Source: Gracilariopsis chorda
Lineage: Eukaryota > Rhodophyta > Florideophyceae > Gracilariales > Gracilariaceae
Direction: 5' to 3'
DNA length: 36,306 nucleotides
NCBI GenBank assembly: GCA_003194525.1
Contig: NBIV01000410.1
Span: 1 to 36,306 of the forward strand
Shown here piece after piece: positions 1 through 24,072 of the stretch. The position numbers were made by a program, and so were the translations under genes. How positions within the stretch are numbered: position 1 is the stretch's first letter; every line of letters begins with the position of its first letter. The notes under the pieces were generated by a model. That model saw only the letters and a list, made by a program, of their open reading frames with translations. It was not told the origin of the DNA and ran no database searches.

Positions 1-214
1 TACACGACCGCCAACACCCAACGCGTGCACACTGACCACGCCTGGCGCAGTTGTCCGTGCGGTTCCACCGCCCTCGCCCGACGTCTCCTGACCGACCGCT
101 TCGGATCCTTGAGCCCATCCTCCGTCCGGGCTTCCTAGGAAACTACACCCACCAATCGCTGAAGCCTCGGCCGACCGGTTGGCACCTTTTATTTAAGCAC
201 TACGCTTCCCCACA
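1..214 (+). repeat. E1 5' LTR, 3' part
   Basis: These 214 bp align without gaps to 10375-10588, with two mismatches. The LTR ends in CTTCCCCACA; the CCACA end matches the TGTGG start of the 3' LTR as a short terminal inverted repeat. The rest of this LTR is outside the window. Confidence 0.95.
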
Positions 215-3362: not shown

Positions 3363-3419
3363 GGAGGGGGCCCCAACACTCCAAAAGACAACCAGAACGG
3401 ACAGGAACTACAGACCGAA

Positions 3420-6400
3420 GTGGTTGACCAGGACGGATGGAAGCAGAAAGTCCGCATCGGCGATGAATATGAGTCCGAACGGGAACGAATCACCGACTTT
3501 CTGCAACCATTCTCGGATATGTGGGATGGACACTTGGGAGCAATCTCAATTGCCAAACACCGCATCCATCTGGAAGATGACTCAAAGCCAATCTTCCAGA
3601 TGCCTTACCGAGCGGTACAGAAGAGACGTGACCTGGAAAGGGAAGAGGTCACGAAGCAACTCCGTGCGGGTGTGATAGAACCGTCGTCCGCAGAATGGGC
3701 CAGTCCGGTCGTATTTGCACCAAAGAAGGACGGCACTCTACGCTTTTGCGTAGACTACCGTCGCCTCAACGCAATGACCGTACGGGATACTTATCCGATA
3801 CCCAGAATGGATGAGTGCATTGACTCACTGGGCGATGCAGTGGTGTTTACCACGCTAGATGCCAATAGCGGTTATTGGCAGTGCGAGTTAGATGAGTCCG
3901 ATCGGGATAAAACGACATTCACCTCCCACATGGGATTGTTCCGCTATGTTCGAATGCCGTTCGGTCTCAAAAACGCACCTGCTACGTTCCAGAGAGCGCT
4001 GGACATCATCCTCTCACGGGTCAAGTGGAAAGTCGCGCTAGTATATCTAGACGATGTCATAATATACTCCCGATCGGTCCAAGAGCATTTTGGGCATGTA
4101 CAGACCGTACTGGAACTCCTTCGTTTGGCTGGCATCACTCTACGCCTGGAGAAGTGCTTCTTCTTCCATCAGGCGGTCGACTATCTCGGCCATGTGATCC
4201 GTCCAGGCAGGCTACAAGTGTCTGGCAATACTTGCGACGCTTTGCGGCAGGCGAAACCCCCTACCAACCAGACGGAACTCTGCTCGTTCGTTGGCCTATG
4301 CAACGTATTCCGTCGCTTTGTAGAGGGATTTGCTCGCATCGCCAGCCCGCTCAACCGGAAACTGGAGAAAGACCAGCCCTTTGAGTTTGAGACACTGAAC
4401 GATGCGGAATATGAGGCGTTTGACGATCTGCGCCAAGGTCTCATACGCCCGCCAATCCTGGCCCTCCCCCGAAACGGATACAAGTACGTCCTGGACACAG
4501 ACGCTTGTAACACCCAGGTCAGATGCTGTCTCCTCCAGGAGCAACCTGAAGGTGATCTGCGACCGATCGGTTACTGGAGTCGGTCATTAAGCAAAACCGA
4601 ACGGAAATACTCAACAACCGAACGGGAATGCTTGGCCGTAGTCTGGGCCATCTTGCATCTGCGACCGTACCTGGAAGGCACGCGTTTCACTCTCCGAACG
4701 GACCATCACTCATTAAGGTGGATCCTCAATTTAGCCGATGCGTCCGGACGGTTAGCGAGGTGGAGACTCCGCCTCATGGAGTACGACTTCGACGTCGTAC
4801 ACCGCCCGGGAGTAAAACACCAAGCAGCCGACGCCCTTTCCAGGATTCGTACGGACGGTGAGGATACAGAAGCACTGGAGGACGGGGTCCCGTGTCTGTT
4901 ACTCGGAAGCGAGCCCGAAGCGGAAGAAACGCCAACAGTGACCACGGTTTGTTATGACGGTATAGAAGAAACCGTCATGATTGATTGGCCGTGGGAAGGA
5001 CCACTTGGACTGAGGCTACCCACGGTGCTCGAGGTGAACACCGAAATGAAGGACGTCAGTCCGATATCGGTGGAAGAGTTCCTGCAGGAGCAGGAGAAGG
5101 ACCCCCTCTGCCTGTCCGCACGGGAGAAAGTAGGAGACGGGAAAAGTCTCTTTGACGTGAACCGAAACGGGATATTGGTAAGGAAGGCACCGCTCGATGG
5201 GGCCCTCCAATGGTACGTACCGGAGACTCTGCAAGCGAGACTCCTGTACTTGTCCCATTACTCCAGGTACGCCGGTCATCCGGGTGCTACAAAGATGTAT
5301 AACACCCTCCGGCGGCACTACTATTGGCCCGGGATGGCCAACGACATTTTCCAAACCGTACGGGATTGTCGCACATGCGTCTCCAGTCGAGGGAGTCGCG
5401 AGCGACATCATAAGCTCCTGAAGCTTTTCCCAGCTGCGGGTCCACTGGAATTCGTCGCGATGGACATTCTCGGCCCATTTACGAAGTCCGCCAAGGGTCA
5501 CCAATATGTCTTGGTAATCACTGATCGGTTCACCAAGTTCTGCCGCGCGATCCCATTGAGGTCAACTACGGCGTCTGCCGTAGCCCAGGCTTTCCTGGAG
5601 AACTGGGTCTACCCGTACGGGATCCCGATATATGTACTAACCGATAACGGAACCCAATTCGTCTCGAAGTTCTTCGAAGCGGTGTGCAGTATGCTTGGCG
5701 TCAAACATATAACCGCTACGGCCTATCACCCCCAAACTAATGGGCAGGCCGAACGGTTAAACAAGACCCTCGTGGAGCGCCTCCGCCACTACGTGGCCGA
5801 GCACCAGACCGCATGGCACGAGTACGTGCAGCCGCTGACCTATGCATACAATATGCAGGTCCACCGCACTACGGGTACCACCCCGTTTGATCTCGTGCTA
5901 ACACGGCATCCGCCCGGCGTACAGGTGGAGACGTCACCCACGACGATCCCCGATGACGGTCCTGACACCGCATCACCCGCGCAGGTGAAGCGATACATCC
6001 TGGCCCGCCTTCGGGACGCTTTAGCATCCGCACGGACACGGACGACTCAGGCCCAGCGCCAGTATAAGCTGGACTTTGACAGATCCGTACGGACTCTCCC
6101 CCGGTTCAAGCCAGGCGACGAGGTTTACGTGGACCGACCGGAATGGATGCCGACAGCCCCACAGGCGGACGTCGACGAATACAACCGCAACTACCGGAAA
6201 TTGCTTCCGAAAACGACGGGACCGTTCCGCGTCGTAACCGCCACGGAGGATACCGTCGTCATTGACGAAGACGGCGTTGAAAACCGCGTCAGCATCGACG
6301 GTATCACTCGGGCGCCACGGCGCACCACCCGCACGGACTCCTCCCGATCGGCGCAACCCCAGACGACAGCCACACCGGACACAGACCCAACGGGCCCCTC

Positions 6401-6647
6401 CGCCCACCAAACGGTCTCCCCTTCGACCCCGTTTGACGAACGACCACGTGAAGCGGTCGTAGACCGAATAGTCGGACATGAGGAAACCACAAACGGGATG
6501 AGGTACCGAGTTCGGTGGTTCGGGTACCCACCCGAGGATGATACGCTCGAGCCCGCCGGTAATATCCCACAACACTTCGTTGCACGTTACTGGCGTCGTT
6601 GCCGCCGTTCACGCCGACAACCTGCACCTCGCACACCAACACCGTGA
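3420..6647 (+). CDS. pol: E1 Pol: RT, RNase H, integrase, chromodomain (intact)
   Basis: Enzymatic polyprotein that copies element RNA into DNA and inserts it into chromosomes. The frame is open from 3363; GTG 3420 is not a convincing start, and the product is probably released from a Gag-Pol precursor. Counting from 3420: reverse transcriptase about 60-265 with the catalytic YLDD at 209-212; RNase H about 355-475 with DTDA (D359), TEREC (E401/E403), TDHH (D428) and ADALSR (D471); integrase zinc finger H613, H620, C650, C653; integrase core D682, D742, E778, i.e. D,D-35-E spacing; post-integrase GPFRVV segment near 934; chromodomain about 1011-1060 (VDRIVGHEE...VRWFGY...DDTLEP). All catalytic residues looked for are present. 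The chromodomain keeps only the central W of the usual aromatic cage. The contrast with the broken gag-protease upstream is striking. Confidence 0.95.
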   Translation: MVDQDGWKQKVRIGDEYESERERITDFLQPFSDMWDGHLGAISIAKHRIHLEDDSKPIFQMPYRAVQKRRDLEREEVTKQLRAGVIEPSSAEWASPVVFAPKKDGTLRFCVDYRRLNAMTVRDTYPIPRMDECIDSLGDAVVFTTLDANSGYWQCELDESDRDKTTFTSHMGLFRYVRMPFGLKNAPATFQRALDIILSRVKWKVALVYLDDVIIYSRSVQEHFGHVQTVLELLRLAGITLRLEKCFFFHQAVDYLGHVIRPGRLQVSGNTCDALRQAKPPTNQTELCSFVGLCNVFRRFVEGFARIASPLNRKLEKDQPFEFETLNDAEYEAFDDLRQGLIRPPILALPRNGYKYVLDTDACNTQVRCCLLQEQPEGDLRPIGYWSRSLSKTERKYSTTERECLAVVWAILHLRPYLEGTRFTLRTDHHSLRWILNLADASGRLARWRLRLMEYDFDVVHRPGVKHQAADALSRIRTDGEDTEALEDGVPCLLLGSEPEAEETPTVTTVCYDGIEETVMIDWPWEGPLGLRLPTVLEVNTEMKDVSPISVEEFLQEQEKDPLCLSAREKVGDGKSLFDVNRNGILVRKAPLDGALQWYVPETLQARLLYLSHYSRYAGHPGATKMYNTLRRHYYWPGMANDIFQTVRDCRTCVSSRGSRERHHKLLKLFPAAGPLEFVAMDILGPFTKSAKGHQYVLVITDRFTKFCRAIPLRSTTASAVAQAFLENWVYPYGIPIYVLTDNGTQFVSKFFEAVCSMLGVKHITATAYHPQTNGQAERLNKTLVERLRHYVAEHQTAWHEYVQPLTYAYNMQVHRTTGTTPFDLVLTRHPPGVQVETSPTTIPDDGPDTASPAQVKRYILARLRDALASARTRTTQAQRQYKLDFDRSVRTLPRFKPGDEVYVDRPEWMPTAPQADVDEYNRNYRKLLPKTTGPFRVVTATEDTVVIDEDGVENRVSIDGITRAPRRTTRTDSSRSAQPQTTATPDTDPTGPSAHQTVSPSTPFDERPREAVVDRIVGHEETTNGMRYRVRWFGYPPEDDTLEPAGNIPQHFVARYWRRCRRSRRQPAPRTPTP

Positions 6648-6972: not shown

Positions 6973-9282
6973 CTAACGACCGCGACCACGGCCACGACCA
7001 GGAGTCTGGGCACGGGCAGACCGCCTCGGAATCGGAGGCAAGCTCCCCTCCCTCGACGAGGCAGACCAAACCGTGGCGGGCTTGGAAACGACGACCCTCC
7101 GCGGACCGCTGGGAGGACCGGAAGCCGGCGCCTGAGGCATTGGCTCATCCTCATAAAGGTCAACCACTTCGTTCGCCACCGCGGGAGCGACAGCGGATGG
7201 AGCCCCCCGACCGCCATGGGACTCCTTATATAGGTCCGTGATGGCCTGGGAAGCGATACGCTCACCCTCCATCCGCAAGGTCAAATCGTCCAACGTGGGA
7301 GCCTCTCCGGTAGGAGAACCCGCAGTACCCTCCGGACGGGCAAGGGCAACAGCAACGGCCAACGTGGCCGGATTGTTCGAGGCCATTTCGGGATCGTAGG
7401 CTTCAGCTTCCATAAGGAGGTGGCCATACAGTTCCAACGACCGAACCGAGTGGACGCGGATACTCTCCAGGAGACGCATCTGCTCCTCAGCAGTCCGCCT
7501 CATCATCTGACCGCCGGTGTGAACGCGACGAATCCAAGTACGGGCAGACAGGACAGCAGCTTCAACCGATTCGGGCTTACTCTCCCCGAAGCTCTCGCAC
7601 ACAGTGCATAGGGCATCGAAAGCCTCTTCAATGGCGGGCGTGAGCCACGGCTCATCGGTCTGCGAGCCCCTCTCCACCCGCTGACGGATTGGAGCGGGCA
7701 CGGACGGTGTCGTCGGATAAGGAACCGAACGGAAGCCGGTGGAACCCAGCGGAGCAACAGGAACCGATGTCGGAGGAGGCGCCTGGCCAATGGCCACCGG
7801 GCCGCGTGATATCAGCTTGGGGGCAGCACGGAAGTCCGACTCCAGATAACCGCTCGGGAAGTAGTTGCTGACTGTAACCTCCTTCCACTCGGGGCGACGA
7901 CCGGCCGGAAGCTCCTGCCGGGAAATGGGCCCACTGTTCCCGCTCGCGGGCATGGTGGGGAACTCCCCAGTGAAGAAGTCATACCACAGAAAGCCCGGGG
8001 TACTGGACCAGTCGGTTTCCACCGACAGACGCAACGCACGCTCCGCACCGGCCGTAGGGATCCGAGAGCCACGCAGGATGTTCTGTAACCCCATGCCGCG
8101 GATCAAGTCCACAAGGCCGAGCGGCAGTGGTAGCAGACGGCCATAATGTGGGCCTTCATCCATCTCGTATAACCGATCATCCCGGTCACGGGTGTATACG
8201 GACACGCCGTTAATCGCAGCCTGAAGGAAGGCCATGAAAGAGAACAGCGCCCACTCCGCGTATACTATCTGGAAGATGCGATCCGAAAACGGTCCAGAAT
8301 TCAACACCTCGGTGGTGTGATACACCAATATCGGAGGAGTCGGGACCGACAGGTTGCGACTTACATCGTAGTCCTTCCAGCCCGTCGGGATAGGCATGTA
8401 CGCACCAATTCGGTCGCTAGGTGCCAGGTCATGGAACTCGACATTGTGCCAGCAGTAGAAGTACCCCAGCGATGACCGAATACGGGCTTCCGTGGCGGCG
8501 TTGTCACCCCAGAGGGAGCGACGCAGCCAATACAGTTCGTCAAAAGGGGGCTCAAACATAATGAGCTCCAACAGGTTGTGGCGCCCGGACGCTGGAAAGT
8601 AGGGGTCATCCTGCATCCGCTTCAACAGACGCTGGAGACGCAACTGGTAGTCCACTTCCTCCGGGCAACGGACAAACGGCATATCGCATCGCCCGAAAGT
8701 CCGAGAAGGGTAAACACCGCACGGGATTGGCAGATGGGCCCAAAGGGCCCTCCAAGCTTCTTCGTCAGTCCGCTTCGGATTACGAACGCTTAGCTCCGCA
8801 TTGGTCCGGACGGATGGAATCCGACCAAACCGAACAGCGTCGAGATATTGCGTAGCGAGGCGCTGATACTCCAGCACGGACAGCGGAGGCTCGCGGTCCT
8901 GACGGTTTGGACGGTAATCGCGCTGAGCCCGATGGTCGAGATGCTGACCGGGAAGAGGAAGCGTGCGCGCAACAACTGGCATATTACCCGAAGATGGACC
9001 AGCCGCATGGGCATAAGGATCAATAGGGGGAGGCATGGCGGATGGCAGGGCAAGGGGAGGTGCGCACGCTGTTGGTTCGGAGTCGGTGGTGACTGGGGAA
9101 GGAACCATGGCGGGTATAAGTAGCGGGAGAAGCTGGCGAGGCGCTAGGGAGGAACTCACCAAAAGGAAGGAAGAAGGATACCCGAACGGACGGCGAGCGA
9201 ATGCATACCCAGGCAACGACCGCCACGGCGCGGTTATAAACGCCCGTACGGACAATAACCGGGCTAATGCAGCCCCGCCCAT
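6973..9282 (-). CDS. E1 antisense ORF (aORF1), 769 aa, novel family
   Basis: Intact ORF opposite to gag-pol, between pol and the 3' LTR. I recognise no characterised domain. Possible starts are ATG 9282 and ATG 9108 (MVPSPVTTDS); a TATA-like TTTATAA at 9240-9234 on the minus strand would favour 9108. From the N-terminus: a Pro/Ala-rich low-complexity segment (PPPIDPYAHAAGPSSG), a conserved core including GYFYCWHNVEFHDLAPSDRI, YMPIPTGW, PPILVYHTTEVL, YAEWALFSFMAFLQ and GFLWYDFFTGEFP, a Pro-rich linker, a helical segment rich in Glu/Arg/Leu, an acidic patch (VVDLYEDEP) and a basic tail ending RGRGRGR. The core aligns with decayed ORFs in the same antisense position in E3 (10610-12318) and E2 (17540-19418). 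Retention of 769 codons argues for function. An RNA-binding or particle-associated role is only a guess. Confidence 0.85.
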   Translation of the reverse strand: MGGAALARLLSVRAFITAPWRSLPGYAFARRPFGYPSSFLLVSSSLAPRQLLPLLIPAMVPSPVTTDSEPTACAPPLALPSAMPPPIDPYAHAAGPSSGNMPVVARTLPLPGQHLDHRAQRDYRPNRQDREPPLSVLEYQRLATQYLDAVRFGRIPSVRTNAELSVRNPKRTDEEAWRALWAHLPIPCGVYPSRTFGRCDMPFVRCPEEVDYQLRLQRLLKRMQDDPYFPASGRHNLLELIMFEPPFDELYWLRRSLWGDNAATEARIRSSLGYFYCWHNVEFHDLAPSDRIGAYMPIPTGWKDYDVSRNLSVPTPPILVYHTTEVLNSGPFSDRIFQIVYAEWALFSFMAFLQAAINGVSVYTRDRDDRLYEMDEGPHYGRLLPLPLGLVDLIRGMGLQNILRGSRIPTAGAERALRLSVETDWSSTPGFLWYDFFTGEFPTMPASGNSGPISRQELPAGRRPEWKEVTVSNYFPSGYLESDFRAAPKLISRGPVAIGQAPPPTSVPVAPLGSTGFRSVPYPTTPSVPAPIRQRVERGSQTDEPWLTPAIEEAFDALCTVCESFGESKPESVEAAVLSARTWIRRVHTGGQMMRRTAEEQMRLLESIRVHSVRSLELYGHLLMEAEAYDPEMASNNPATLAVAVALARPEGTAGSPTGEAPTLDDLTLRMEGERIASQAITDLYKESHGGRGAPSAVAPAVANEVVDLYEDEPMPQAPASGPPSGPRRVVVSKPATVWSASSREGSLPPIPRRSARAQTPGRGRGRGR
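9234..9240 (-). promoter_or_regulatory. TATA-like box for aORF1
   Basis: Minus-strand TTTATAA lies about 125 bases before ATG 9108. If it is a real TATA box, transcription would start near 9205 and ATG 9282 would be excluded. The call rests on sequence similarity alone. Confidence 0.35.
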
Positions 9283-9967
9283 GTCACCTCGGGACCCTCA
9301 TAGGACGTGTACCAGGACGCCCCCTTGGCTACGGTATGCACCATCCCCCTCCAGCCGCCACGTACCCCCGGTACCTCTGTCCACGCCGGGCAGTAAGTGG
9401 ACGTTGGGACTGTCGGAACACTGCGCCGTCACAACCGCTTGAAAGGTAATGGCTCATACCGACGGGAACACGACGCCCGCCCTGGAACCCGACCGCTCTC
9501 CGATCTCCGCCCACCTCGCAACCGGCCAAAGGCCTCAAGACCAAGACCGTTCGGGAGAAACGGACATATTCCCCCCCCCGGCCTGGGCAGGCCACTTCGG
9601 TGCGCCCACGCCTATCGCGCGTGGCTCGGCGCCTGGGCATGCTGTGCTGTTCCTACACGGCGATGCTACCCCCTGAAGTGTGCGGTGTATTCCGCTATTG
9701 GGAGAAGGGGGCGCGAACCGCTTGATGGAAAGGGCGGGGCGTTCCGCTATTCGGTCTGATGGCGCGCCACTCGCCAATGGATTTCGGCATTCAACCGAAC
9801 GGTCGACGAAGGCGTACCCAAGTGTCTGAGCGCGCAGGTGGCATTTGGCCACCGCGGTCAGACATATCGTAGGGTGCGCCGAGTGCGTACCGTCTGACCA
9901 AATTGCACTTACCTCCGCCATCGCGACCGACCGGACATGGGCGCGCTACGAGGACGTGGCGCGAACT
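9283..9967. other. E1 region between aORF1 and 3' LTR, no gene seen
   Basis: About 685 bp with only short, unsupported ORFs. It must hold any promoter elements of the antisense ORF that lie upstream of ATG 9282. The short word TTCCGCTATT occurs twice (near 9690 and 9752), and its inverse GGAATAGCGG occurs at the very start of the 3' LTR (9984). Confidence 0.5.
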
Positions 9968-9980
9968 AAGAAGGGAGGTA
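9968..9980 (+). other. E1 polypurine tract
   Basis: AAGAAGGGAGGTA directly precedes the TGTGG start of the 3' LTR. Matching tracts ending GGATA precede the 3' LTRs of E2 and E3. It would prime plus-strand DNA synthesis. Confidence 0.75.
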
Positions 9981-10178
9981 TGTGGAATAGCGGACGTGCA
10001 GGTAAGGTGGGGAATGCGAGTAACCGAGCGGATGACAGACCGGGAATTGGACAGGTTGTACACGTGCGTGCTTGTGCACATGATCAGAACGCGTACCGAG
10101 ATTTTCCGTGCGGTACACTAATTTTTAGTATTTATAGCTAGGGTAGTATTAGTGACCCATGTGCGGCCGACGGGCCTG

Positions 10179-10211
10179 CACCTCGAGGCCCATTACAGTG
10201 CCCTCGAGGTG
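10179..10211 (+). promoter_or_regulatory. Inverted repeat in E1 LTR U3
   Basis: Perfect 10-bp inverted repeat with a 13-bp spacer; each arm contains CTCGAG. It lies 20 bp upstream of the TATA-like sequence of the LTR, a position suited to a dimeric transcription factor site. The role is inferred. Confidence 0.45.
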
Positions 10212-10230
10212 AGCCACTAGGGCTTGGGCT

Positions 10231-10240
10231 AGTATATAGG
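10231..10240 (+). promoter_or_regulatory. TATA-like box in E1 LTR
   Basis: AGTATATAGG, 250 bp into the LTR, is the best candidate promoter core for genomic RNA of E1. A second AT-rich candidate (TATTTATAG) is near 10129. Confidence 0.45.
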
Positions 10241-10609
10241 TACCACTACGGTCACTACCCCTTTTCGAGTAAAGCCAGACGTTCCTTGACCAAGTCTACG
10301 AGCACCTACTTCTAGTTCGCGATACAGACGGCGCACTAGGTAGCGCAGCTAGTCTGACCGGACACCACTAGTGGTACACGACCGCCAACACCCAACGCGT
10401 GCACACTGACCACGCCTGGCGCAGTTGTCCGTGCGGTTCCACCGCCCTCGCCCGACGTCTCCTGACCGACCGCTTCGGATCCTTGAGCCCATCCTCCGTC
10501 CGGGCTTCCTAGGAAACTACACCCACCAACCGCTGAAGCCTCGGCCGACCGGTTGGCACCTTTCATTTAAGCACTACGCTTCCCCACAAGCAGCAAGCTC
10601 CATACTACA

Positions 10610-12318
10610 CTACACTAACTGGCATAGCCAGGGAAGGAACACCAGGAAACTGGACAAAAGGGGCTCACTCTTCGCCGTCACCCCGCTGGGGATAGAAGGT
10701 CCGGCACTTGCCGCCAAAGGGTCCGCAGCCGGCTCGGCTGGAGACAACCCCTCTGGGAAAGCTTCCGTGCTAGCGCCGGTTTCCTCTACGTCCATCTCCC
10801 CGGGTTCTTCCGGTTCGTTATCGACCATTGGGTCATCCCCGCCGTATGTGCGGTAGTAGTTGTCAGAATCGACGTACCCCACCGGGTGGTCTTCCGGCAC
10901 ATGCCAGGGCGTATCGCGAAGCTCGCGCGCCTCCTCGGAGGAAATTTCCCGGAACTCCCAGGGGTCGAAGTAGATAAAATCCCCCGCAAGGGCGGTGTTT
11001 CTACCCAGTCCCGGACCACCGGTGTTACCGCTGCCGCCATCCGGAGGACCGCTTTGCTCCAGCGGGACCTCACTCCAGCTAACGCTGTCGATGTACCCAA
11101 GTAATTGGAGAACCTCTTCATTGTTGGCTTGGCCCCCAAGGGGGATGCGAAGATCCAAATTGCGGATCGTTGCCCGCACACGCAGTGGGAGGAACCAGAG
11201 ACGAAACTGGTCGTACGCCTCGTTGAGGATATAAGCCGCAGCGCGGGCCGCCCACTCCCTAACCACTACGGACCACAGCCCCGACCGGGGATCCTGCATG
11301 AGCAGCAAACCACGGTACGTAAGTACCGGCGGGAGTTCTATGTAGCACCCCCAGCAGGCTTCATGGAAGCGCCACCACTCGGGGATTGCTACATACCGAC
11401 CTAGTCGGTGAGATGGCGCAATCCGCTCTATCTCCACATTCTGATACGGGATGAAATACCCGAATCGGGATCGCCAACGCTGCCCATAGCGGATGAATTT
11501 CTGGAGGACGTTTGACCGGTATTACCGGGAAAGATAGCGGAACTCCACCCGAATAATCGGTAGCTCCCAACAAAGGGCTTCTTGCCGCGCTGCGGGGAAA
11601 TTCTTCCAAGCGAGGGTCTCGAGGCAGGACAGGTTGTCGCCGTACCCAATCTACCCGCGAGTGCGGCAGTGGCTAACGTCGAAGCCAAACTCCGGTGGGA
11701 CCGGTACATCGAATGGAGCCCGGCTCTCTCGTTCGCATGCCATGCGCGTCAACGCGGTCTGCGCCGCAGCGACGGTCTCGCCCGAATTCCTTCGGAGGTG
11801 GTGACGAAGAATCACAATCCGGTGACGCCAATCCCACGATGTGGTGACTGCTCTGGGCAGATCCCCGGAAGGGTGTCTGAACCATCCGCATAAGCGGTGA
11901 CCAATCCCTAATTGAGGACAGCGACCGGGTGAAACCAAGGGGCAAGGCGCAGGCGCGACGCGTGATTCCGATTCATCGGGCTGAGCCCCACCAGGGTGTT
12001 GTAGGTTGGCCAGTTGAACGCCGGAGCGGTTCCGGAGGACCCCACCGAAGGTGGTAGTGCGAAGGGGTGGTCGGCTGTAGCAGCCATATTCCCCGGTTGT
12101 ACCGGATGTCGATCGCCCTGAGGCAGGGGAACTGACCGGAAACCGGTGGTGTATCGCCCGAGAGGCCTCGGAGGTTGACTGTTGTTGTTGATGTTGTTGT
12201 CATTGTTCATTTCTCCCTTTTCGAGGGTGGCTTTTGTTGTTGTTTGTGCGATCGATAACTCTGGTGCAGAGGGATTTACCGGAGAACCGGAGACAGAGCA
12301 CGCGCTTTTATCACCCAT
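10610..12318 (-). pseudogene. E3 antisense ORF (aORF3), frameshifted
   Basis: Member of the same unrecognised family as aORF1. The C-terminal 275 codons are open (11437-10610) and contain RLGRYVAIPEWW, CYIELPPVLTYRG, LWSVVVREWAARAA, YDQFRLWFLPL, LDLRIPLGGQ, GDFIYFDPWEFRE and the acidic HPVGYVDSD...DDPMVDNEPEEP tail. The N-terminal part (12318-11908) is Asn/Pro/Gln-rich (NNDNNINNNSQPP), encoded by a GTT-type microsatellite near 12180-12240. The middle, 11440-11940, is spread over several frames (e.g. HRIVILRHHL and FGFDVSHCRTR, which align with E2). At least two frameshifts. Start could be ATG 12318 or the ATG at about 12210 (MNNDNN). Confidence 0.75.
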
Positions 12319-12362
12319 TTTTGTCTGGGAATCCTCCGCGTCTGCGGTCGTTTTCCCGTCTT

Positions 12363-12374
12363 AGGGGGGGGATA
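12363..12374 (+). other. E3 polypurine tract
   Basis: AGGGGGGGGATA immediately before the TGAAG start of the LTR. The GGATA end matches the tract of E2. Confidence 0.7.
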
Positions 12375-13205
12375 TGAAGTGCAACGCCCTCAGGGAGGGA
12401 TTCCTGGTACTTGATCGTTTTCCCAATATTATCGGTTATGTAGTGTGTATATGAACTACGCCCCACAATGGTGGGTATGGACACGTGGGACACGGTTTTG
12501 GGTCAATTGGCGGTTGGCCACAGTAGTGGATGTTGCCAGGAAATGTGGAGTATTTTAGTTAATTTTATTTATTATTTTCACACCCATTTCTGGGAAGCTA
12601 GTACTTAGTGCGACGGCGCACTGCCGTCGCACCAGTAAACCTTCCCCAACAAGGGACCCCAACCTGGAGAGTTGGCTCTAGTTGTTACCGCTTGCGTGCG
12701 TGCTCTACTCCTCCTTGGAGGGAAACGCCGTAAACCACGGGCCATCTAACCCCTTGCACATCTAAAGAGGCCCATCCTTGGGAGTATAGTTGTTCCAATC
12801 ACATTGGTGTTTCGCCCTGTATAGGGAGTCCTGTCCACCGGCATTGCCGTGTTTGTTCGTCGCTCTTGCGACACACCCTCGCCCACTTTTCCTCCTTTCC
12901 CTTCACTCTCCTCCTTTCCCCCTTTCGGGGTAGTACATCCCGCTACCCGCGGCCCTCCTGTGTGCACCCACTCACACTTCCCCACTCACGTGGAAACATA
13001 CCTCTACTGAGGATCACACCCCGCTCACGCGGATACCGATTCTTCGCCTTCACCTCCGTGCGCAAGTCGCGACAGGTGTCCCTCCTCTTACAAACCGGCT
13101 TCGCCGTGACACCTTTGGGAGGGCTCTACCCAACTGGGTTCACCTCGTGAGAGGAAGATCCCGAACGTCTTTCGGTGTTTTTCCCCTTTGGGGCATTGCA
13201 CCACA
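12375..13205 (+). repeat. E3 3' LTR (copy A, ~831 bp)
   Basis: Begins TGAAGTGCAACGCCC and ends GGGGCATTGCACCACA, with inverted terminal similarity. It aligns along its length with 16417-17196: shared landmarks include CTCAGGGAGGGATTC, GGACACGTGGGACACGG, GGTTGGCCACAGTAGTGG, TTTCTGGGA, ACCAGTAAA-CTTCCCC and GGGTTCTACCCAACTGGG. Overall divergence is moderate, with indels. Confidence 0.8.
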
Positions 13206-13234
13206 CATTTGGCTCCTCGGGCTGCGTCCCGCGC

Positions 13235-14424
13235 TCACTGCTCAGAAGATATATACGTGTTTGAGATTTGATTCCTTCCCATTGTGCGCGTCCTAAAGTT
13301 AAGTAAACGTACGGCCAGTTCAATTATGATAGCTCTTCTGTTGGAATCCGTTGATAAGGTTGACTTAAGGTGACCAAATGGATCTTTGATAGCACCTATA
13401 CCTCATTCAGCACTCTGCCGTTCACTTTGCATAATTCGTTGCATAATAAGGTCTATGGCAGCCAGTGTTTCCGATTCAGGAATGTCGCGCGTTTCGTTCG
13501 TTTTCCTTGCTCTAATAATCTTTCCATTAGTGCATTTCGTGTTGTTTAGAAAAGCGGAATCACCTAGTATAGCCATCCCTGGAGGTTTCATAGTGCCTGA
13601 ACGTTTAGGGTAGTACAGAACACAAAGTCCAGCAAGCCTTGTGTCGTGCCAGCTCCCCGGGAAGTTTATGGCGGCGTGTATTATCTCTCCATGAAAGTTA
13701 AACACAAAAAGATTAGTAACCTCTACTTGTTGCGTGTATCTTTCGTAGTACGCATTCTGTAAATGACGATCTCCATATTCCTGGCACTTGAAACGGCCTC
13801 CGTCTGTCACAGCAAAAACGCCTTCAAGGAGCGGACCAAAGTGTCTGTTGTTCTCCAAAGTGCCGCAGATTTTTTCTGTTCGTCAAAGGACGGCCAGCGC
13901 ACACCAAACGGGTCTTGTGTGTCTGCTTTTGTTGCTTTAAGAAGCACATGTAGGGCGTAATCCAGCCAGACCCCTAGTTGTGATGGAACTACACCAAAGA
14001 AAGGGCAGAGTTGATATGCTTTAGATGAGGATTTCAAGTAGTACAATGCCATTCCCGATAAATCTACGCTCTGTAATAAGGGGTTCCTTCCTTGCGATGA
14101 ATGCATCCTTGGATGCGGACTATTGAATGTGGATTGTGTGCGCGCATTGGAGAAAAGTGGAAGCATATCGTTGAGTAAAAGACTTTTGGTAAAGTTGGTT
14201 GTTATGATAAAATCTTGGTCAGTGCCATGGAGGAGAATTTGCTGCCATGGTGTTGGTTGATGAATGTATCTGGGATGTAGGAGGCCACGACGGGTGTGGT
14301 AAGCCGAATGGTGAGAACGCCTTGCCCATTTTCGGCGTTTGGCTAATATGTGTGAACACGCAAGTATCGTTGAATAGGCGACAACACAAGCCGAAACAGC
14401 AGCTTTGTGGATTCTCGAGACCAT
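13235..14424 (-). pseudogene. PIF/Harbinger-type DDE transposase, broken
   Basis: DDE-superfamily endonuclease (Pfam DDE_Tnp_4-like) that would cut and move a DNA transposon. ATG 14424 opens the N-terminal half, which contains LLHGTDQDFIITTNFTKS, a helical GMALYYLKSSSKAYQL segment and GVRWPSFDEQKKSA. A one-base frameshift near 13860 moves the catalytic half into the frame from 13858: FAVTDGG (first Asp), NAYYERYTQQVEVTNLFVF, NFPGSWHDTRLA (GSWHD), LGDSAF (second Asp) and QSERQSAE. The Trp codon expected after SAE is a TGA stop (near 13403). Beyond it the frame continues GIGAIKDPFGH to LLNFRTRTMG and ends at TGA 13237-13235. So: two disabling lesions and an otherwise recognisable full-length gene. 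TIRs were not found. Similar transposases are known from oomycetes and fungi. Confidence 0.85.
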
Positions 14425-14461
14425 TCGGAGCGGTCTTACGGTCGGACGAGGTTTGGCGGAC

Positions 14462-14512
14462 GATTTGGCGATCAGAATGGACTCTCGGAGGGTCCATTCT
14501 GATCGCCAAATC
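14462..14512. repeat. Perfect 21-bp inverted repeat (hairpin)
   Basis: Arms 14462-14482 and 14492-14512 are exact reverse complements (each contains GGCGATCAGAATGG or its complement) around a 9-nt loop, TCTCGGAGG, which can extend the stem by up to three more pairs. It lies 38 bp upstream of the transposase ATG. Confidence 0.9.
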
Positions 14513-14599
14513 TGGCGTGCAGCCGACCAAATTGGTGGGCACTTGGCCTTTATTTATTGGCTTACATTTGACCACAAGGCCAACTGGCGATTTCTGCAG

Positions 14600-15010
14600 G
14601 CACCCACTAAAGACAATGATTGTCTGTCTGTCTGACTGTGTGTTGCTCTACGGCCAGTCATTGGCTGGAAAATCAGCAAACAGGCCGCCAAGTGGAAACG
14701 AGTAACTTTATGCGCTCCAAGGGGCATCTTGCGCCGCACAATGCGACACGTTTCCACCTGGCGCCCTTTGCACGCCAGAGCAGCCTAGCCGTTTGACTAA
14801 AGTAGCCCACCCGTTATACTACAGTAACCGAGCCGTTGCACTGCAGTGCACATGAACGTTTTAATTACCATTTTTCAATGGACATGTGCACCGATGTCAT
14901 TCCACCCTACAATAACCATGGTCATGCAAACCAATGAAATTCTACGGCACAAAAAACTGTGCTATGCCATTTGCGCGCTGAGCGCTCCCGTTCTCTTTCG
15001 CTGTGATTAA
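14600..15010. repeat. Dispersed repeat R3, copy 1
   Basis: Starts in a (TCTG)n microsatellite and aligns with 28005-28380. Shared landmarks: TTTATGCGCTCCA, GTTTCCACCTGGCGCC, AAAG(T/C)AGCCCACCC, GCAGTGCACATGAACGTT and GAGCGCTC-CGTTCTC. No coding potential or tRNA-like promoter boxes were recognised; the class is unknown. Confidence 0.65.
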
Positions 15011-15881
15011 CGTACTAACTTTAATTTGCGCAACACGGGTATACCCGTATTTACTTGCCGACATGGCTACACTCCCCTGCACCAAAACATTAGCACGACG
15101 TGCTGCGATGACATGACCCTCCACACAACAATGCTGTACGCCACGATGATATGCGCTAAAATGTTGCACGCTATGTTTTCACCTCGCTCAGGCATTCCAG
15201 CTTACTGCATAGCAGTAGTACCCCCTTACACCTTACACGACAATACACGCAACGTATGTATGCACAGAAATGCTTTGCGAGACACTTTCATAGGCAAAAA
15301 TGAAAAATTTCAAAACCTCTTCTCTTTTCTACGTAGTAACGCTCTTAAGGTTCCTCATTAGAGCACTACACAGCTTGAACAGTCTTCTTAGTCTGCTAGC
15401 AGAAAACATTGGGTAGAAAGAACAACATTGTAATACATCTTCGTTCATAGCACGCTATTGCCATAAAAAGCTCTACAAACTGCATTCAGCGGCGCTAAGG
15501 TGCCATTCACGCCAATATTAAACGCAAAGAAGGTAGAATATTTTTAATGTGGGCTCGAAACCACCACATGCAGAGCTAGTCATTCTTATAACAGCGTCTA
15601 CGGAATGCATGCCACAGCGATGGTGTACTTGGCACGCGGGAATGAAAAAATCACATTCAGAGAACTCTATGGCCAATTTGCACGTTCATGTCTTGCACGA
15701 AAGAGCAGAAAGCAGATGGTCTATATACACGCTTGTCATGTTTGCTTTTACGCTAAATTAGACCTTCGATTGAGCTTGTGTTCACCAATGATGCTACAGT
15801 GAACGAAGTAACCCGAACGCTTGCGTAGAAGCACGCACAAGAGCCTTTCGTCTCATATAATAAAAATTAGGTTTGTTTGTC
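15011..15881. other. AT-rich region with no recognised feature
   Basis: About 870 bp, with short ORFs only (longest about 110 codons, unsupported). It is host sequence or an unrecognised repeat. Its right edge GTTTGTC abuts the 3' LTR of E2. Confidence 0.5.
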
Positions 15882-17361
15882 TGTGGTTCAAAACGTTGCG
15901 AAGAGAGAGACACAAGAAGGCGTTCGGATCCTCTTCTGTACACGGTAGCAACAGTAAACAGAGCCACTTGCGGTGCGTGCAATAGTCGGGTGTACGTCCG
16001 AGGCTCACGGTCACGACGGACGTGCAGGTGTACGGTATAGACGGAAAGAAAGCCCCAGTCAAGGGACAAAGAAATAGGGAATCACCGGCGAACAGGGGGT
16101 GCTGCCTGTATCAGGGGAAATATAAAAGGTATAGTAGAATAAGCACAGCGGATGGTAACGCGACGCGGAATGCGGTTCAAGATGCCACAAGGTGGAGTAA
16201 CTTGTCCTCCCCCAGGCTTTGGCTCTCCGATGGATCTTTCCAAATACTAGGGGTTCCTAAGTCAGAGCAGAACACTTTGTTGTTCTGTTTACCTTCCCGC
16301 AGTGAGGTCCCGGTCACATTCTAAGTATAGTCGGCGCCGGCCTTCTGTCGGGCAGCTTAATTAAATTAGATAAATAGAATATAGCTATTCCTAATTACAC
16401 GCGTGACAAGTGTGCCTGAAGTGAAATGCCCTCAGGGAGGGATTCTTGGTACTTGGCTGATTGTCCGAATGTTTCGGTAATGTAGTCATTGCGTGAACTA
16501 CGACCACATATACTGGATTGGACACGTGGGACACGGAAGAGTCAATTGTCGGTTGGCCACAGTAGTGGGCATGATCCACCAAAGTGGAGTAATTTATTTT
16601 TTTTTACACCCATTTCTGGGATGGTTAGTACCTAGTGCGCCGGCGGGTTGCCGTTGCACCAGTAAAACTTCCCCAAAAAGGAATCCCAACCTGGGGAATT
16701 GGTCTAGACCTCACCGCCTTCGCGTGTTCTCTACTCCTGTTTGCAGGGAAGCACCGACGCATACGGGAAGTCTGACCCCCTTGCCTATCTAAAGGACGCG
16801 AGTATTCGGATTATTACTACAACTGTCTTGGTGTTCGCCTTGTATAAGGTTTATTTGCCAGCATTGCCATTAGTCTTCGTCGCGACACTCGTAACTCAGC
16901 TCCCCCTTATTTTCACTTCATAGGGTGGCTTTCCCGCTACCCACAGTTCGTTTTCGCACTTGCCACTAACGTCGAAATTTCACCTCTCTAGAGGACGACC
17001 TCCCCCATACACCGCTCCTGCGGATACCCGATTCTTACCTCAACCTCCCTGCGCAAGTCATGACGGGTGGGCTCGGCCTTACAACCCGACATATTCGTGC
17101 CACTTCTGGGAGGGTTCTACCCAACTGGGCTCACCTCTAACAAGGAAAGATCCCGAACGTCTTTCGATGCAATCCCGCTTCCGGGCATTTCACTACGTGC
17201 CAAAGTGACAAGTAAACTAATGTCCATTAAAATGTGCAGGTAGCCTCGGCGTTGGGTAATTGACCTCCGATTCATATATCGGGCACGTCCGCCGCAATGC
17301 AGTAACGCTGCATATATGAGTTGCAAGGTGCGATAAACCTCCGCGAACGCGTTGCACTACA
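15882..17361 (-). repeat. E2 3' LTR, split by a solo LTR
   Basis: 15882-16416 plus 17202-17361 align to 27310-28004 and sum to 695 bp, exactly the length of the other copy. Plus-strand start TGTGGTTCAA and end GCACTACA. The alignment continues straight across the inserted 16417-17201, proving the later insertion. Confidence 0.9.
16417..17196 (+). mobile_element. Solo LTR of the E3 family (copy B, 780 bp)
   Basis: Related along its length to LTR A (12375-13205). Ends TGAAGTGAAATGCCC / GGGCATTTCACTAC give an 11-bp inverted terminal match. The 5-bp target duplication GTGCC is at 16412-16416 and 17197-17201; the intact E2 LTR has a single GTACC at this place. There is no internal region, so it arose by LTR-LTR recombination. 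Confidence 0.88.
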
Positions 17362-17375
17362 TATCCCGCTCCTTA
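17362..17375 (-). other. E2 polypurine tract
   Basis: On the minus strand AAGGAGCGGGATA runs directly into the TGTAGTGCA start of the E2 3' LTR. It matches the E1 and E3 tracts in place and in its GGNTA end. Confidence 0.65.
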
Positions 17376-17420
17376 GGCGCAAAAGCGTCCCCGTGAGCGA
17401 CGATCACCACCACAAGGGGG

Positions 17421-17430
17421 CCTATTTAAG
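17421..17430 (+). promoter_or_regulatory. TATA-like box upstream of aORF2
   Basis: CCTATTTAAG lies about 150 bp before the first ATG (17582) of the E2 antisense ORF, similar to the spacing of the candidate box of E1. Weak evidence, based on sequence and position only. Confidence 0.35.
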
Positions 17431-17539
17431 CATCTCCTCGGCATAGCTGATCCTGGCACGTCTTCTCACGGCCAGAACCAGGCCTTTTCCTCGCAACGCG
17501 ATTACATCTTCGCCTTCAGCGCACATTATCTCGATTTCT

Positions 17540-19418
17540 TTGACGTCATCTTCTGCTTCTCCTCTGATTCCTCATGTGACTATGAATTCGAGAAACCTGA
17601 CCAGCCAACCGCAAGGCGGAGCTTCAAAAGTTTCGAATCCATCAGCAGCTGCGAACAACCTTGGACCTCAACATGCGATGCAGTGGAATCCTCTGCAATT
17701 CGTAGGCGGCTTTAACACAGCTCCTCCACCTCCAGCGAGTTATCCTCCAGCGACTGCTGTGTGGTATTCACCGAACTACCAGCCTGCCCAGCAGATGTAT
17801 CAAGCTGCAATGCAGCCTCAACAAGCGAGTCCACCGGCGTGGCAATGGCCCTCTCAACATATGATGCCAAGAAACCTCCTACATGAACCTTGGGCCTCTT
17901 ACGAAGAGTTAGAAGCGGTCGATCTCCGACAGAACGCAGTACTGTAACTACGGGCTCCTTGGCTTCACCCTCACGGGTCCGCCTCCAGATGATAATCGAA
18001 TCAAATGCCGATGGCGTGGGCCGGTTACAGGGTTAGTTGCAGGTCTATATGACTTCAATATTTGACTGTACACACCGGATTGCCGTTCCTTCTCACGCCA
18101 TTATCTACTATCGTGGTGAAAGCGACGCGAACGCGCGAGCAGCCCTCATCATGGTGGCGCATCAGCGGTTATACCGAATTTATTCAGATAGTCCAATTCT
18201 GACTAACTTCCGTTTCGACGTGGCCTTTTACCGAACACTCCGGGAGATCCAATATGGAAAGAACCTCGCACGTCTCGCAAATACTGTTGAACAGTACCAG
18301 GGTACTCCCGTGCACAACAATCTATTGTGTTGGACGCGTCCGCTATTGCCGGCCGAATTTTGATATCTTTCACGTGAGTCACGGTCCTTATCTGTTCAAA
18401 GAGTGATTCGTTTCGAACGACGAAGCCGCTTCCGTTGACGATATCTTATATATTTTCAGAGCACTGAAGCGAATAGAATTTGCCCTCCCCACATGCGTGG
18501 GAGATATGTCCCGATCCCGTTTGTGTGGGCTTCCACCGAAGTCTGCCGTGGGTGCTATGTGGAACTCCCACCTTGTATCACATGCGTGGGTAGTCGTCTT
18601 TTGAGCAACCCGTTCACGGGATGGTGGTCGGTTGTGAACACGGATTGGGTGCGCGAGCGGCGGTATATTTCCTCCAAGAGGTTTACGACCAGTATCTTCA
18701 TTGGTATATCTCACCAACACTTCATCGTGGCATCCGATCCCTTGATCTCATAATCCCGCTCGGTGGCAATAGAAACTTCTCAGCGGTGGTGAGCCACCTC
18801 AATTTTATCGACCACACCGATTGGAATATAGTGCCGGTGGACTGGGCTGCTCGCAACGATGATGTGGACACAAGTGACCGATCACCCGGAAGAAGGGCTC
18901 CCATAGTGGGTGATTTCATCTATTAAGATCCGTGGACGCGGGTGAGAGTTACTCCGGACTAGGCCTTAGTCCTCCGCGACGCAGAAAAAATCATCGTGTC
19001 CAGACATCCAACTGGATTTATCGTCACCGACGAGTTCTTCCACGCAGACGATGCGCAAGATCCAATGCTGCATGAAGCTCCTGATGAGGATTATGGAACG
19101 GCGCTTATGGCGATTGAAGAGCCGGTTAACCAGAGAGCAGGGCAATCGGGACCAGTAACTTCGGCACCGCCAACGATTGTCCCTTCGATATCAGTTGCTC
19201 CTCTGGTTGTGCCGGTTCCTGTTCCGTCCAAATCGATTGCGTCAGCCACATCCGTGATGAATGATGCCCAGCGTGCCGCTGTGATCTCTCAGTTCCTTCA
19301 GGAGGCTGGCTTATCTGACATATTGTCGAGTGACGTCGCAAAAATGCAAGGTGCGCTCAAAGCGATAGTGGGCCAGAACGATGGAAACCAACCGGGTTCC
19401 AGTGGACCTTCCTCCTGA
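17540..19418 (+). pseudogene. E2 antisense ORF (aORF2), frameshifted
   Basis: Third member of the family, opposite to E2 gag-pol. The first true ATG is 17582. The N-terminal frame (to 17947) is Pro/Gln/Tyr-rich low complexity (APPPPASYPPATAVWYSPNY, then QQMYQAAMQPQQ). The core continues in other frames: HRIAVPSHAIIYYRG and FRFDVAFYRTL (18037-18363), GRYVPIPFVW, CYVELPPCIT and GWWSVVNTDWV (18493-18753), YFLQEVYDQYLHW, LDLIIPLGGN and IVGDFIY (18621-18926, ended by TAA), then HPTGFIVTDEFF with an acidic DAQDPMLHEAPDED tail and a helical C-terminus to TGA 19418. Block order is the same as in aORF3. At least two frameshifts and one in-frame stop. Confidence 0.78.
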
Positions 19419-19798: not shown

Positions 19799-21415
19799 TC
19801 AAGGGAGATGTTCAACTGCTTCATCCGTGTCCATCGATGGTGGAAAGCCGTACCAACGGATATGGTATTGTATGAAACCCTCGGGGTGGTAACTTTGTCC
19901 CACGATGTGGTCAATAACAAACTCCTGTGGATAAACTTCCTGCGTCGCAGTGTCTTCAGACGTCCGGTTCACCGATAAAGGCGACGGCTGCGCCAGTGGT
20001 GTAACCACCTGGCGGGTTAATCCTAACGTCTGGGACGGATTCAACGAACTCTGATGAGTACCTGTTACCTTCTCCATCAGGAGCCACCGAGATTCCTCCA
20101 GTGCGAGGGGCCGAGATTCCGTGGATTGACAGGGTCCCTGCTCGCGGGCTGTGACGGTTCAAACCCGGGAGGCCGATCGGTTGTACCGAGGTCACGTGCT
20201 GGGGACAACGGCGCGTCCACGGAGGTGGTGCCAACAATGCGCACTGGCGGAAACGAACCTCCACCAGTGTAGGCACGTGGCACGTCGCATGCACTGGTGC
20301 GCGACAGTGCTCCTGCAGTTACAGCATCAATTACTCTAGGCAGGGCTGTAATCGAACTTCCACTATCCATCTCCTGGTGTCCCTGGCCTTCTTGACGGGC
20401 ATCGTGTGCATCTCCCACGCTAAGTGGTGATGGTAGACCAAAATGACCCATCTCGGGGCGAATATGTTTTACTTTATAGTGTGCCTTGTAATTCGAAGAA
20501 CTGTTGCTGATTAGACCGGGATCTCCCGTGACTGTTTTAGAAGGCGCAGCGAGCAGCGACAACCAGCCGACGTCAGTGACGGTGTGGTCTGTGGACGACA
20601 CAGTATCCAGGTTAACTAATCTAGACTTAACCAGGGCTTCTGTGTCTGCTATCACCTGTCAGTCCGCGATGTGCTTGCCCAGTTCCGACTGCCTCGAGGA
20701 AGTTTTGCGGGAGCGATCACCAATTGGCGACACTTCCTTGACGGCATGAGATAATTCATCAGTCTGAAGTGCGTGGTTCTCATCTGATGAGCGCAAGACA
20801 TCCTTACTAACAGGGCTACTATCCCCCACAACGGGTGTACTATCAGTTTCAGCGCTAGCACGCGCATTCGGTGTTGCGGTGCCGACAATCGGAGAAATCT
20901 CGGCTCAGCCGACTTGTGTATTCCCAAGGAGCTGTTCCACTTTCTAAATCCGTGTATTACTAGCGCTAGGCAACGGTCGTGACAGCGGTAAAATTTCCTC
21001 GCCAGAGCGGGCAGTCTCCTCCTTCTCCTTAGCTGGAGAGAAATCGGGAGCCAAAAGTAAGTCCGGGGGCGGATTAACAGGCGGAAAAGAGCGAGTATGA
21101 ACCAACTGGTTCGTAACCGAAGAATGGGTTGAAGAAAACGACGGTATGTCGTTAAGTCCTCGCCGAAGGATCTGTATCCCTGTAGGAGTGATGCCAATAT
21201 CTTCTGTGAGGTTTTGTCGACCACAGTATCATCCGTTCCAATATGGGAAGGCAGTGCCTCCGTATGTAGTGTAGCGCCTTGAACCACTCGATATCGAGAA
21301 AAGCGTTCGTGATTGTGATCAACTTCCAGGACCACTGTGCTCTTTTCGACGTTGACGACCTTATAAGGGCCATCCGCGATGGGTAAAAGTTTGTGACGTT
21401 TCTCCTTCTCGACAC
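19799..21415 (-). pseudogene. E2 integrase C-terminal region and chromodomain, decayed
   Basis: The segment read from 21415 downwards contains the post-integrase module (DGPYKVVN-like, then TVVLEVDHNHERFSRYRVVQG). The chromodomain lies at 20077-19799: EFVIDHIVGQSYHPEGF, then YHIRWYGFPPSMDTDEA. It resembles the E1 chromodomain, including loss of the aromatic residue expected near DT-EP. The linker between is spread over frames with several stops. Chromodomains of this kind direct integration to marked chromatin in known chromoviruses; this copy cannot act. Confidence 0.7.
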
Positions 21416-21772
21416 TGTCGTATTCTTTCCTTACGAAGACTAGTTGTCAGTTCTCAAGATATGGAAGAGAACGGCGAATCTGAGCATCGAAATTCCGCTT
21501 ATCATCGTTTTGTGCCTTCGCCATAGATGAATTAGCGAACGGTACAATCGTAGTTAGCCAATTCTTCCATTTGGTGTAGTGATCCGTTGCGGACGGCACC
21601 TTATCCAATGTAGGTTAAGAATCGACCACTACCGGTGGTGGTGAACGTGAGAGAACCACTTCAAATGGATATAAACCAGTAACTCTGTGGACTTGCGTAT
21701 TATACGCATACATAATTGTATCTGTGAAAAGATCCCAAGTCCTTGGATGTTCAACCGTATAAGCACGGAGTG

Positions 21773-22555
21773 CTAATAAAAGTGTAGGGTAAAACCGTTC
21801 AACCTTTCCATTAAATTGGGGTGATAGGTTGTTGTAAACAAATTATTCACATCGAGTATCCAACAAACGTCTTGAAAGAAGCGAGCCACAAATTGTGGTA
21901 CCTTATGGGAGAGGAGATTCACCGGCGGGCCGTAAACCAAGACCGAGTCAAGGACAAAAGCTTCCGCTACACTGCGAGCGGTAATCTTCTTCAACGAAAC
22001 TCTCCGGACTAATTTAGAGAACCTATCCGTAATCATGAGCAAATACTTATGCCCACGGGAATTCCGGAGGAACTCACCGAGAACATCGATAGACACAAAT
22101 TACAAAGGAGCCCGTGCCGGGAACAAAGTCAGTTTCTTCGCATGGCGACGAAACTTAACTCGTTTGCCAGTACAGTGCATACAACTTTTCATCAGTGCAT
22201 AACAATCAATTGCTAATGCAGGCCAGTCTAAATCCAGACGAGTTGTCGTGTAAAGCTTCCTAGGCCCAAGATGAGCCGACATCTTCGAGTGATGGGATAG
22301 ATGTAGGACTCGCGACTGAAGCGAATGAGGTACCACGATCTGTTGGTTAGGACGGAGTGTTCTGACCAGGTATCCCTGTGAATTCACTCCAAATGGGATA
22401 TCAGCACTGCCATTAATCGTGGTGCGTATCTTCGTACAAAACAGATCTCCGAAGTGTTTGCGAATCAGTTCGTTGGGGGTACTCAGAATAAACGATCCCG
22501 ACTCCGGGTCTTGTCCGTTCGAAACGAGTAGGTCATCACAGACATCGTTTGACAC
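21773..22555 (-). pseudogene. E2 integrase, decayed
   Basis: 22555-22100 holds the zinc-binding domain (HLSHHSKMSAHLG, then YALMKSCMHC, H-H-C-C). A stop at 22097-22099 separates it, in the same frame, from the catalytic core 22096-21773: SIDVLGEFL (first Asp), YLLMITDRFSKLVR, VNLLSHKVPQFVARFF and ERLN (Glu). The second catalytic Asp, normally in a TDNG/SDNG motif, is replaced by His. Inactive. Confidence 0.8.
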
Positions 22556-24070: not shown

Positions 24071-24072
24071 CA

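What the first reader, a model, noticed from the sequence alone, without database searches (positions are those of the whole stretch)
6973..19418. New family of antisense genes carried between pol and 3' LTR by three divergent Gypsy elements
Seen: E1 (9282-6973), E3 (12318-10610) and E2 (17540-19418) each carry an ORF opposite to gag-pol, between pol and the 3' LTR. The proteins share ordered blocks: (R/K)xGxYxxIP, LPP(V/C)(L/I)T, W(S)VVxxxW, (V/A)YDQ(F/Y)xxW, LDLxIPLGG, GDFIYxDPW and HPxG(F/Y)...DDPM-type acidic tail. E1 is more distant but keeps the order (GYFYCW..VEFHDLAP, YMPIP, PPILVY, EWA). All begin with a Pro/Gln/Asn-rich low-complexity segment. LTRs of the three are unrelated, so the gene was retained across long divergence. 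Known: antisense ORFs occur in some plant Tat/Ogre/Grande elements; I do not recognise this family among them. Inference: a conserved accessory function, perhaps nucleoprotein-like, envelope-like or anti-silencing.
Basis: partly seen in the sequence, partly recalled or inferred. Interest (0 to 1): 0.9.

Follow-up and report, generated by a model that had tools for sequence, protein, structure and literature searches.

The report
Antisense accessory gene in seaweed retrotransposons
Many copies of a virus-like mobile element in the genome of a red seaweed carry an extra gene written backwards behind their replication genes; its protein matched no known family in our searches, so what it does for the element is an open and testable question.

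Summary
Confirmed, and larger than reported. The window is a contig of Gracilariopsis chorda, a red alga. E1 carries an unbroken 769-aa frame opposite to pol, between pol and a 608-bp 3' LTR. E3 and E2 carry homologous, frame-broken versions: E1/E3-type E=2e-12, E2/E3-type 9e-22; profiles of the two deep groups E=3.9e-13 over 245 columns. The family fills at least 352 loci (capped lists); 78 of 130 E3-type rows have a frame of 600 aa or more without a stop in the match. Of E2- and P0007-type rows with a top-scoring reverse transcriptase row within 8 kb, 48 of 51 have it on the opposite strand, 3' of the gene (43 distinct RT rows). Shared variants of E3-type copies favour synonymous changes in this frame (47 of 88, 0.30 expected, p=2e-6); E1-type copies show this only weakly. 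A relative exists in Gracilaria domingensis. No library matched above cut-off; no usable fold. Antisense genes at this place are known in plant Retand/Grande and fungal Boty elements; this protein lacks the Retand domain. Function is inferred: probably an accessory, nucleic-acid-associated or regulatory protein.

The parts
1..214 (+). E1 5' LTR, cut by the contig start (last 214 bp of a 608-bp LTR)
   Evidence: Matches 10375-10588 at 99%; the full 608-bp LTR is seen in the C555 copy
3363..6647 (+). E1 pol: RT, RNase H, integrase, C-terminal chromodomain
   Evidence: Pfam RVT_1 2.6e-30, RT_RNaseH, Integrase_H2C2, rve, Chromo 5.6e-9
6973..9282 (-). E1 antisense gene, unbroken, 769 aa; the true start may be Met59 (aligned with Met of two other types)
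   Evidence: no Pfam family reported; alignment
9981..10588 (+). E1 3' LTR, TGTGG...CACA, 608 bp
   Evidence: 97.7% to the 5' LTR of the C555 copy
10610..12318 (-). E3 antisense gene, broken (open pieces 12360-11908 and 11521-10610)
   Evidence: about 89% to longer frames elsewhere
12375..13146 (+). E3 3' LTR (start TGAAGTG after a G-run; end not settled)
   Evidence: Similar to the flanks of the 26 E3-type loci listed out of 27 given; families D7, D8
17540..19418 (+). E2 antisense gene, broken
   Evidence: open pieces; homology
20077..24933 (-). E2 pol region, broken (RT piece 23346-23879, integrase zinc piece 22103-22609)
   Evidence: Pfam RVT_1 2.5e-13, Integrase_H2C2 4.7e-8
15884..17361 (-). 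E2 3' LTR, interrupted by a solo LTR at 16417-17196
   Evidence: families D1, D3, D4
27312..28004 (-). E2 5' LTR (at least this stretch), 83-88% to the 3' copy

Best explanation
A red algal lineage of Ty3/Gypsy elements is ambisense: gag-pol is read from the 5' LTR, and a third gene is read on the other strand from the 3' LTR end towards pol. (1) That the gene is real and conserved is shown, and that it is kept by selection is shown for E3-type copies (about 0.97). (2) That its transcript starts in or beside the 3' LTR, read backwards, is inferred from the frame opening within 60 nt of the LTR start in 18 of 18 unbroken E3-type copies (about 0.7; no RNA data seen; in E1 the frame starts 0.7 kb from the LTR, and an inner start codon could be used). 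(3) That the protein acts in trans as an accessory, nucleic-acid- or chromatin-associated factor of the element's life cycle (RNA packaging, nuclear entry or transcription control), not as an envelope or a mere antisense RNA, is inference (about 0.4): disordered-looking Pro-rich start, conserved core, and a tail that is RG-rich in two types of group B and, in most of group A, acidic plus a short conserved motif.
For: Position and strand: 25 of 30 E1-type and 27 of 30 E3-type loci have pol on the opposite strand at the 3' side (the 30 best of each search); E2-type 22 of 24 and P0007-type 26 of 27 rows with an RT row within 8 kb, all 48 at 3.6-4.5 kb (five elements are in both lists); 43 of 150 top RT rows have such a gene 3-5 kb downstream, a lower bound. 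Coding: dN/dS; in E3-type copies the antisense frame has the best synonymous excess of six frames: 128 of 313 variants, 0.29 expected, p=3e-6, and 47 of 88 shared variants, 0.30 expected, p=2e-6. Depth: profile comparison E=3.9e-13 over 245 columns; the Gracilaria domingensis relative falls in a group A clade with support 99/100. Frame start beside the LTR. RG tails in P0001 and L061.
Confidence: 0.5

Rival explanations
1. The working product is the antisense RNA: convergent transcripts overlap pol and the 3' LTR and form double-stranded RNA that tunes silencing; the protein is incidental.
For: The two genes of E1 end tail to tail about 325 bp apart, so read-through would overlap; PMC7264820 (parts 1 and 2 read) raises this for plants.
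Against: Protein-level conservation between groups 24% identical and synonymous excess in one frame of E3-type copies point to selection on the protein.
Confidence: 0.1
2. An envelope-like protein for cell-to-cell transfer.
For: It sits where env lies in retroviruses and where Env-like ORFs lie in plant elements (PMC7264820). The best 19-residue hydropathy windows of E1 (1.58), L064 (1.45) and L039 (0.95) fall in the same core block (EWA), and L061 reaches 1.71 elsewhere.
Against: Antisense; three of four values are below the usual 1.6 cut-off (recalled) and no stretch above it is shared; no envelope family in Pfam. Hydropathy is a crude test.
Confidence: 0.05
3. A suppressor of host silencing (small-RNA or chromatin), diverging fast under an arms race.
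For: RT is 62-64% identical between E1 and one E3-type and one E2-type element, while the antisense proteins E1/E3-type are 30% identical over 166 aa: fast change, as expected of a counter-defence protein.
Against: Gag-like structural proteins also change fast (recalled); no homology to a known suppressor; no functional data.
Confidence: 0.25
4. A host gene captured once by a retrotransposon, or a domesticated gene, with no role in transposition.
For: A copy is annotated as a host gene, BWQ96_03215 in G. chorda.
Against: It sits beside pol at a near-fixed distance in many copies of divergent elements. Loci without a pol match (7 of 60) were not studied further, so a host copy is not excluded.
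Confidence: 0.1

Closest known systems
Plant Retand/Ogre (Tat) antisense ORFs with the Transposase_28 domain (PF04195)
   Same: Antisense, between pol and 3' LTR, conserved in most copies, function unknown (PMC11963269, passages and Discussion read)
   Different: No Transposase_28 match reported for five proteins at a limit of E=10, though HMMER's filters drop most matches above 0.1; Retand is called a non-chromovirus lineage there, whereas E1's pol and E3-type flanks show a chromodomain; host is a red alga
Maize Grande gene23
   Same: Antisense gene before the 3' LTR; own promoter and nuclear product reported (as told in PMC7264820; original paper not seen)
   Different: Its sequence was not at hand to compare; plant host
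Boty brtn (Botrytis, Sclerotinia)
   Same: Antisense gene between pol and 3' LTR outside plants (as told in PMC7264820; cited in PMC8365987; Zhao 2011 not seen)
   Different: Homology not testable here; fungal host
HTLV antisense gene (HBZ; the name and its bZIP domain are recalled)
   Same: Antisense gene with a promoter in the 3' LTR (as told in PMC7264820)
   Different: No bZIP or other known domain above cut-off here

Membership tests
Antisense additional ORF of LTR retrotransposons (aORF-3R) | Lies between pol and 3' LTR | tested here: met
   E1; E3-type copies; E2. Not tested for the other types
Antisense additional ORF of LTR retrotransposons (aORF-3R) | Opposite strand to gag-pol | tested here: met
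   52 of 60 loci: 7 without a pol match, 1 same strand; 48 of 51 RT neighbours of E2- and P0007-type rows; 0 of 6 for the three other row sets, whose RTs seem not to be listed
Antisense additional ORF of LTR retrotransposons (aORF-3R) | Present in most copies with conservation like other element proteins | tested here: inconclusive
   43 of 150 top RT rows paired, lists capped; conserved but faster than RT
Retand-type antisense protein | Transposase_28 domain PF04195 | tested here: not met
   No match reported for 5 proteins at a limit of E=10 or 5 more at E=1
Retand-type antisense protein | Host element is not a chromovirus | tested here: inconclusive
   Chromodomain after integrase in E1, 5.6e-9, and in E3-type flanks; no RT tree was made to place the lineage
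Boty brtn | Sequence homology to BRTN | not testable with these tools
   BRTN sequence not held; no paper text with it seen
Env-like ORF | Transmembrane segment and sense orientation | tested here: not met
   Antisense; no hydropathy peak over 1.6 shared by four types
HBZ-like antisense factor | bZIP domain (recalled) | tested here: not met
   No such Pfam match
HBZ-like antisense factor | Antisense promoter in 3' LTR | not tested
   Only the closeness of frame and LTR is seen

The most novel reading that the evidence does not exclude
Red algal Ty3/Gypsy elements are true ambisense retroelements: nearly every lineage depends on an antisense-encoded third protein, older than the split of Gracilaria and Gracilariopsis, that is a structural or regulatory ribonucleoprotein factor with a fold of its own.
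Probability: 0.25. Interest if true: 0.8.

Novelty: new variant of a known kind. Interest (0 to 1): 0.6.

Why it matters
Antisense genes before the 3' LTR are reported in plant and fungal Gypsy elements, with function unknown (PMC7264820). A family with no detected relation to the Retand protein, at 352 or more loci of several divergent types in one 91-Mb red algal genome, would suggest that such genes were acquired more than once, and gives much material to ask why. It also indicates that some 'hypothetical proteins' in public red algal annotations (BWQ96_03215, perhaps FGB62_50g12) are retrotransposon genes.

Tried and rejected
Host first guessed to be a fungus (0 matches of an rRNA pattern); the 5.8S/18S sequence (judged from memory) and seven phycobilisome linker rows pointed to a red alga. 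One linker's best whole-length single-stretch solved match is 5y6p LR3 (467 bits; that 5y6p is from the red alga Griffithsia is recalled), while 8imn CpcN scores higher by five repeated stretches. A contig as long as that of P0004 (445,473) settled G. chorda.

Rows dropped before counts: 10 of 64 rows (second fragments of a locus); only 19 rows in the second set (18's 82 plus one); only 11's 130. Loci are the 30 best of each search, not random; L016 and L019 are one element, L001 and L031 are the window itself. Frame tests used 27 E3-type and 10 E1-type loci; dN/dS used eight E1-type frames, pairs with ten or fewer differences not printed, and the 18 of 27 E3-type loci with frames of 600 aa or more. 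My first count of 86 frames did not look at stops; the recount gives 78.

Novelty in print: ten paper searches; listings only, except PMC7264820 (parts 1 and 2 of 3, passages), PMC11963269 (passages, Discussion), and passages of PMC5408684, PMC8365987, PMC5970526, PMC2864245, PMC12477816. Nothing I saw describes such a gene in red algae; the G. chorda genome paper (recalled) did not appear in these listings.
Full report
Where the window comes from. It is contig C410 of a 91.3-Mb genome in 1081 contigs. Seven phycobilisome linker rows on its contigs point to a red alga; the best whole-length single-stretch solved relative of one is 5y6p LR3 (red algal by recall). The annotated G. chorda protein BWQ96_03215 (P0004) matches C30 at 100% over residues 1-491, and C30 has exactly the contig length listed for P0004, 445,473. 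The host is therefore Gracilariopsis chorda (Rhodophyta, Florideophyceae).

What is in the window. E1 runs from the contig start to 10588: LTR end, a gag region (by eye; its frames have no Pfam match), pol at 3363-6647 with RT, RNase H, integrase and chromodomain, then a frame of 769 aa on the other strand (9282-6973), then a 608-bp 3' LTR at 9981-10588. E3's antisense gene lies beyond it, broken, against an LTR starting at 12375. E2, on the minus strand, has a broken antisense gene at 17540-19418, broken pol at 20077-24933, and LTRs 83-88% alike, so an old insertion.

Is it chance? No. A frame this long is outside 300 shuffles (maximum 326 codons, observed 774). The three genes are homologous: E1/E3-type 2e-12, E2/E3-type 9e-22, E1/E2 7e-6. 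One E2 piece (18594-18923) shows no similarity to E1 (306 of 1000 shuffles score as well), so E1 and E2 are linked by the middle block and through E3. Profile comparison of group A (P0003-P0007, L039) with group B (P0001, P0002, L061, L064, L066) gives 97.9% probability, E=3.9e-13, over 245 columns.

How many, and where? Capped, overlapping searches list 64 rows of E1-type, 130 of E3-type, 150 of E2-type, 68 of P0007-type and 82 for P0004. Merging 402 rows of the first four lists gives 352 loci. Of the 130 E3-type rows, 86 are listed with a frame of at least 600 aa, 78 of these without a stop in the match. In 1.5-kb flanks, pol lies on the opposite strand at the gene's 3' side in 25 of 30 E1-type and 27 of 30 E3-type loci; seven loci show no pol match (L015 lies at a contig start; L031-L033 are E3 copies beside an E1 copy) and one, L025, shows pol on the same strand. 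Against the 150 best RT rows: 24 of 150 E2-type rows have an RT within 8 kb, 22 as expected, two on the same strand beyond 7 kb; 27 of 68 P0007-type rows do, 26 as expected at 3.8-4.1 kb, one on the 5' side. For E1-type 3 of 54 rows, for the 11 E3-type rows given 2, and for the 19 rows of the P0004 set 1 have such a neighbour, none as expected; the RTs of these types seem not to be among those 150. In all, 43 of the 150 RT rows have the gene 3-5 kb downstream; at least 12 more lie too near a contig start to be tested.

Selection. Among open frames, dN/dS is 0.34-0.86 (E1-type, eight frames) and on average 0.40 (18 E3-type frames); other types 0.59-0.86; the window's E3 against L039 0.49. Copies decay neutrally after insertion, so these are diluted values. 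In E3-type loci 128 of 313 variants are synonymous in the antisense frame (0.29 expected, p=3e-6), and 47 of the 88 shared by two or more copies (0.30 expected, p=2e-6), best of six frames; the mirror frame, whose third positions coincide, shows 42 of 88. For E1-type the signal is weak (20 of 40 shared variants, p=0.02, mirror frame 19 of 40; no excess over all 462, p=0.2).

Evolution. The tree splits into two groups along one branch with full support (P0007 and L061 are long branches, and the program warns of them). The G. domingensis protein (P0006) lies in a clade with L039, P0004 and P0003 (99/100) whose inner order is open, so types may have diverged around or before the split of the two genera, or moved between them. 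RT is 62-64% identical between E1 and two other elements, the antisense protein 30% over 166 aa: it changes much faster than RT.

The protein. By eye: a Pro-rich start, a core of about 250-300 residues, then a tail: RG-rich in E1 and L061; in most of group A acidic with a short FLR..GL motif, also found in E2. No family above cut-off in Pfam, PHROGs, NCBIfam or PADLOC, and no PDB relative (best E=0.21). No hydropathy peak over 1.6 shared by four types. Two structure predictions failed as whole models; the better-scoring part of the second is mostly helical and found no match.

How it may work. In 18 of 18 unbroken E3-type copies the LTR start lies within 60 nt upstream of the antisense frame, so its promoter probably lies in the LTR, unless an inner start is used (inference). 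Of the possible roles, an accessory nucleic-acid-associated or regulatory protein fits best; an anti-silencing role is the main rival. Neither is shown.

What is known. Antisense ORFs at this place are reviewed for plants and fungal Boty in PMC7264820 (parts 1-2 read) and surveyed for Retand in PMC11963269 (passages and Discussion read); functions are unknown there too. The present family shows no Retand domain, and E1 and the E3-type elements carry a chromodomain. I saw no report of it in ten searches of one open-access library (listed under Tried and rejected), which is not proof of absence.

Noticed in passing
16417-17196: A solo LTR similar (73-75% in two blocks) to E3's LTR sits inside E2's 3' LTR, with GTGCC on both sides, like a 5-bp target duplication.
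   Followed up: partly
13403-14553 (-): Remains of a DNA transposon: DDE_Tnp_4 match 1.6e-10 at 13406-13882; a second open piece at 13810-14553 has no family match.
   Followed up: partly
32950-35474 (+): By eye, gag-like and protease-like frames (a DTGA motif) of a further Gypsy element near the window's end; no Pfam match.
   Followed up: no
window 6976-11521; C211:135198-139707; C541:1-3474: The same E1-beside-E3 arrangement recurs in C211 with equal spacing and in C541 within 1 bp, so these contigs may be duplicated or uncollapsed copies of one locus.
   Followed up: no
1520-2911 (-): A 463-codon open frame antisense to E1's gag region; not studied, may be mechanical.
   Followed up: no
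C30:292265-293737: The public gene model BWQ96_03215 seems to place an intron in what is one open frame in related copies (frames of 643-682 aa); it is annotated as a host hypothetical protein.
   Followed up: partly
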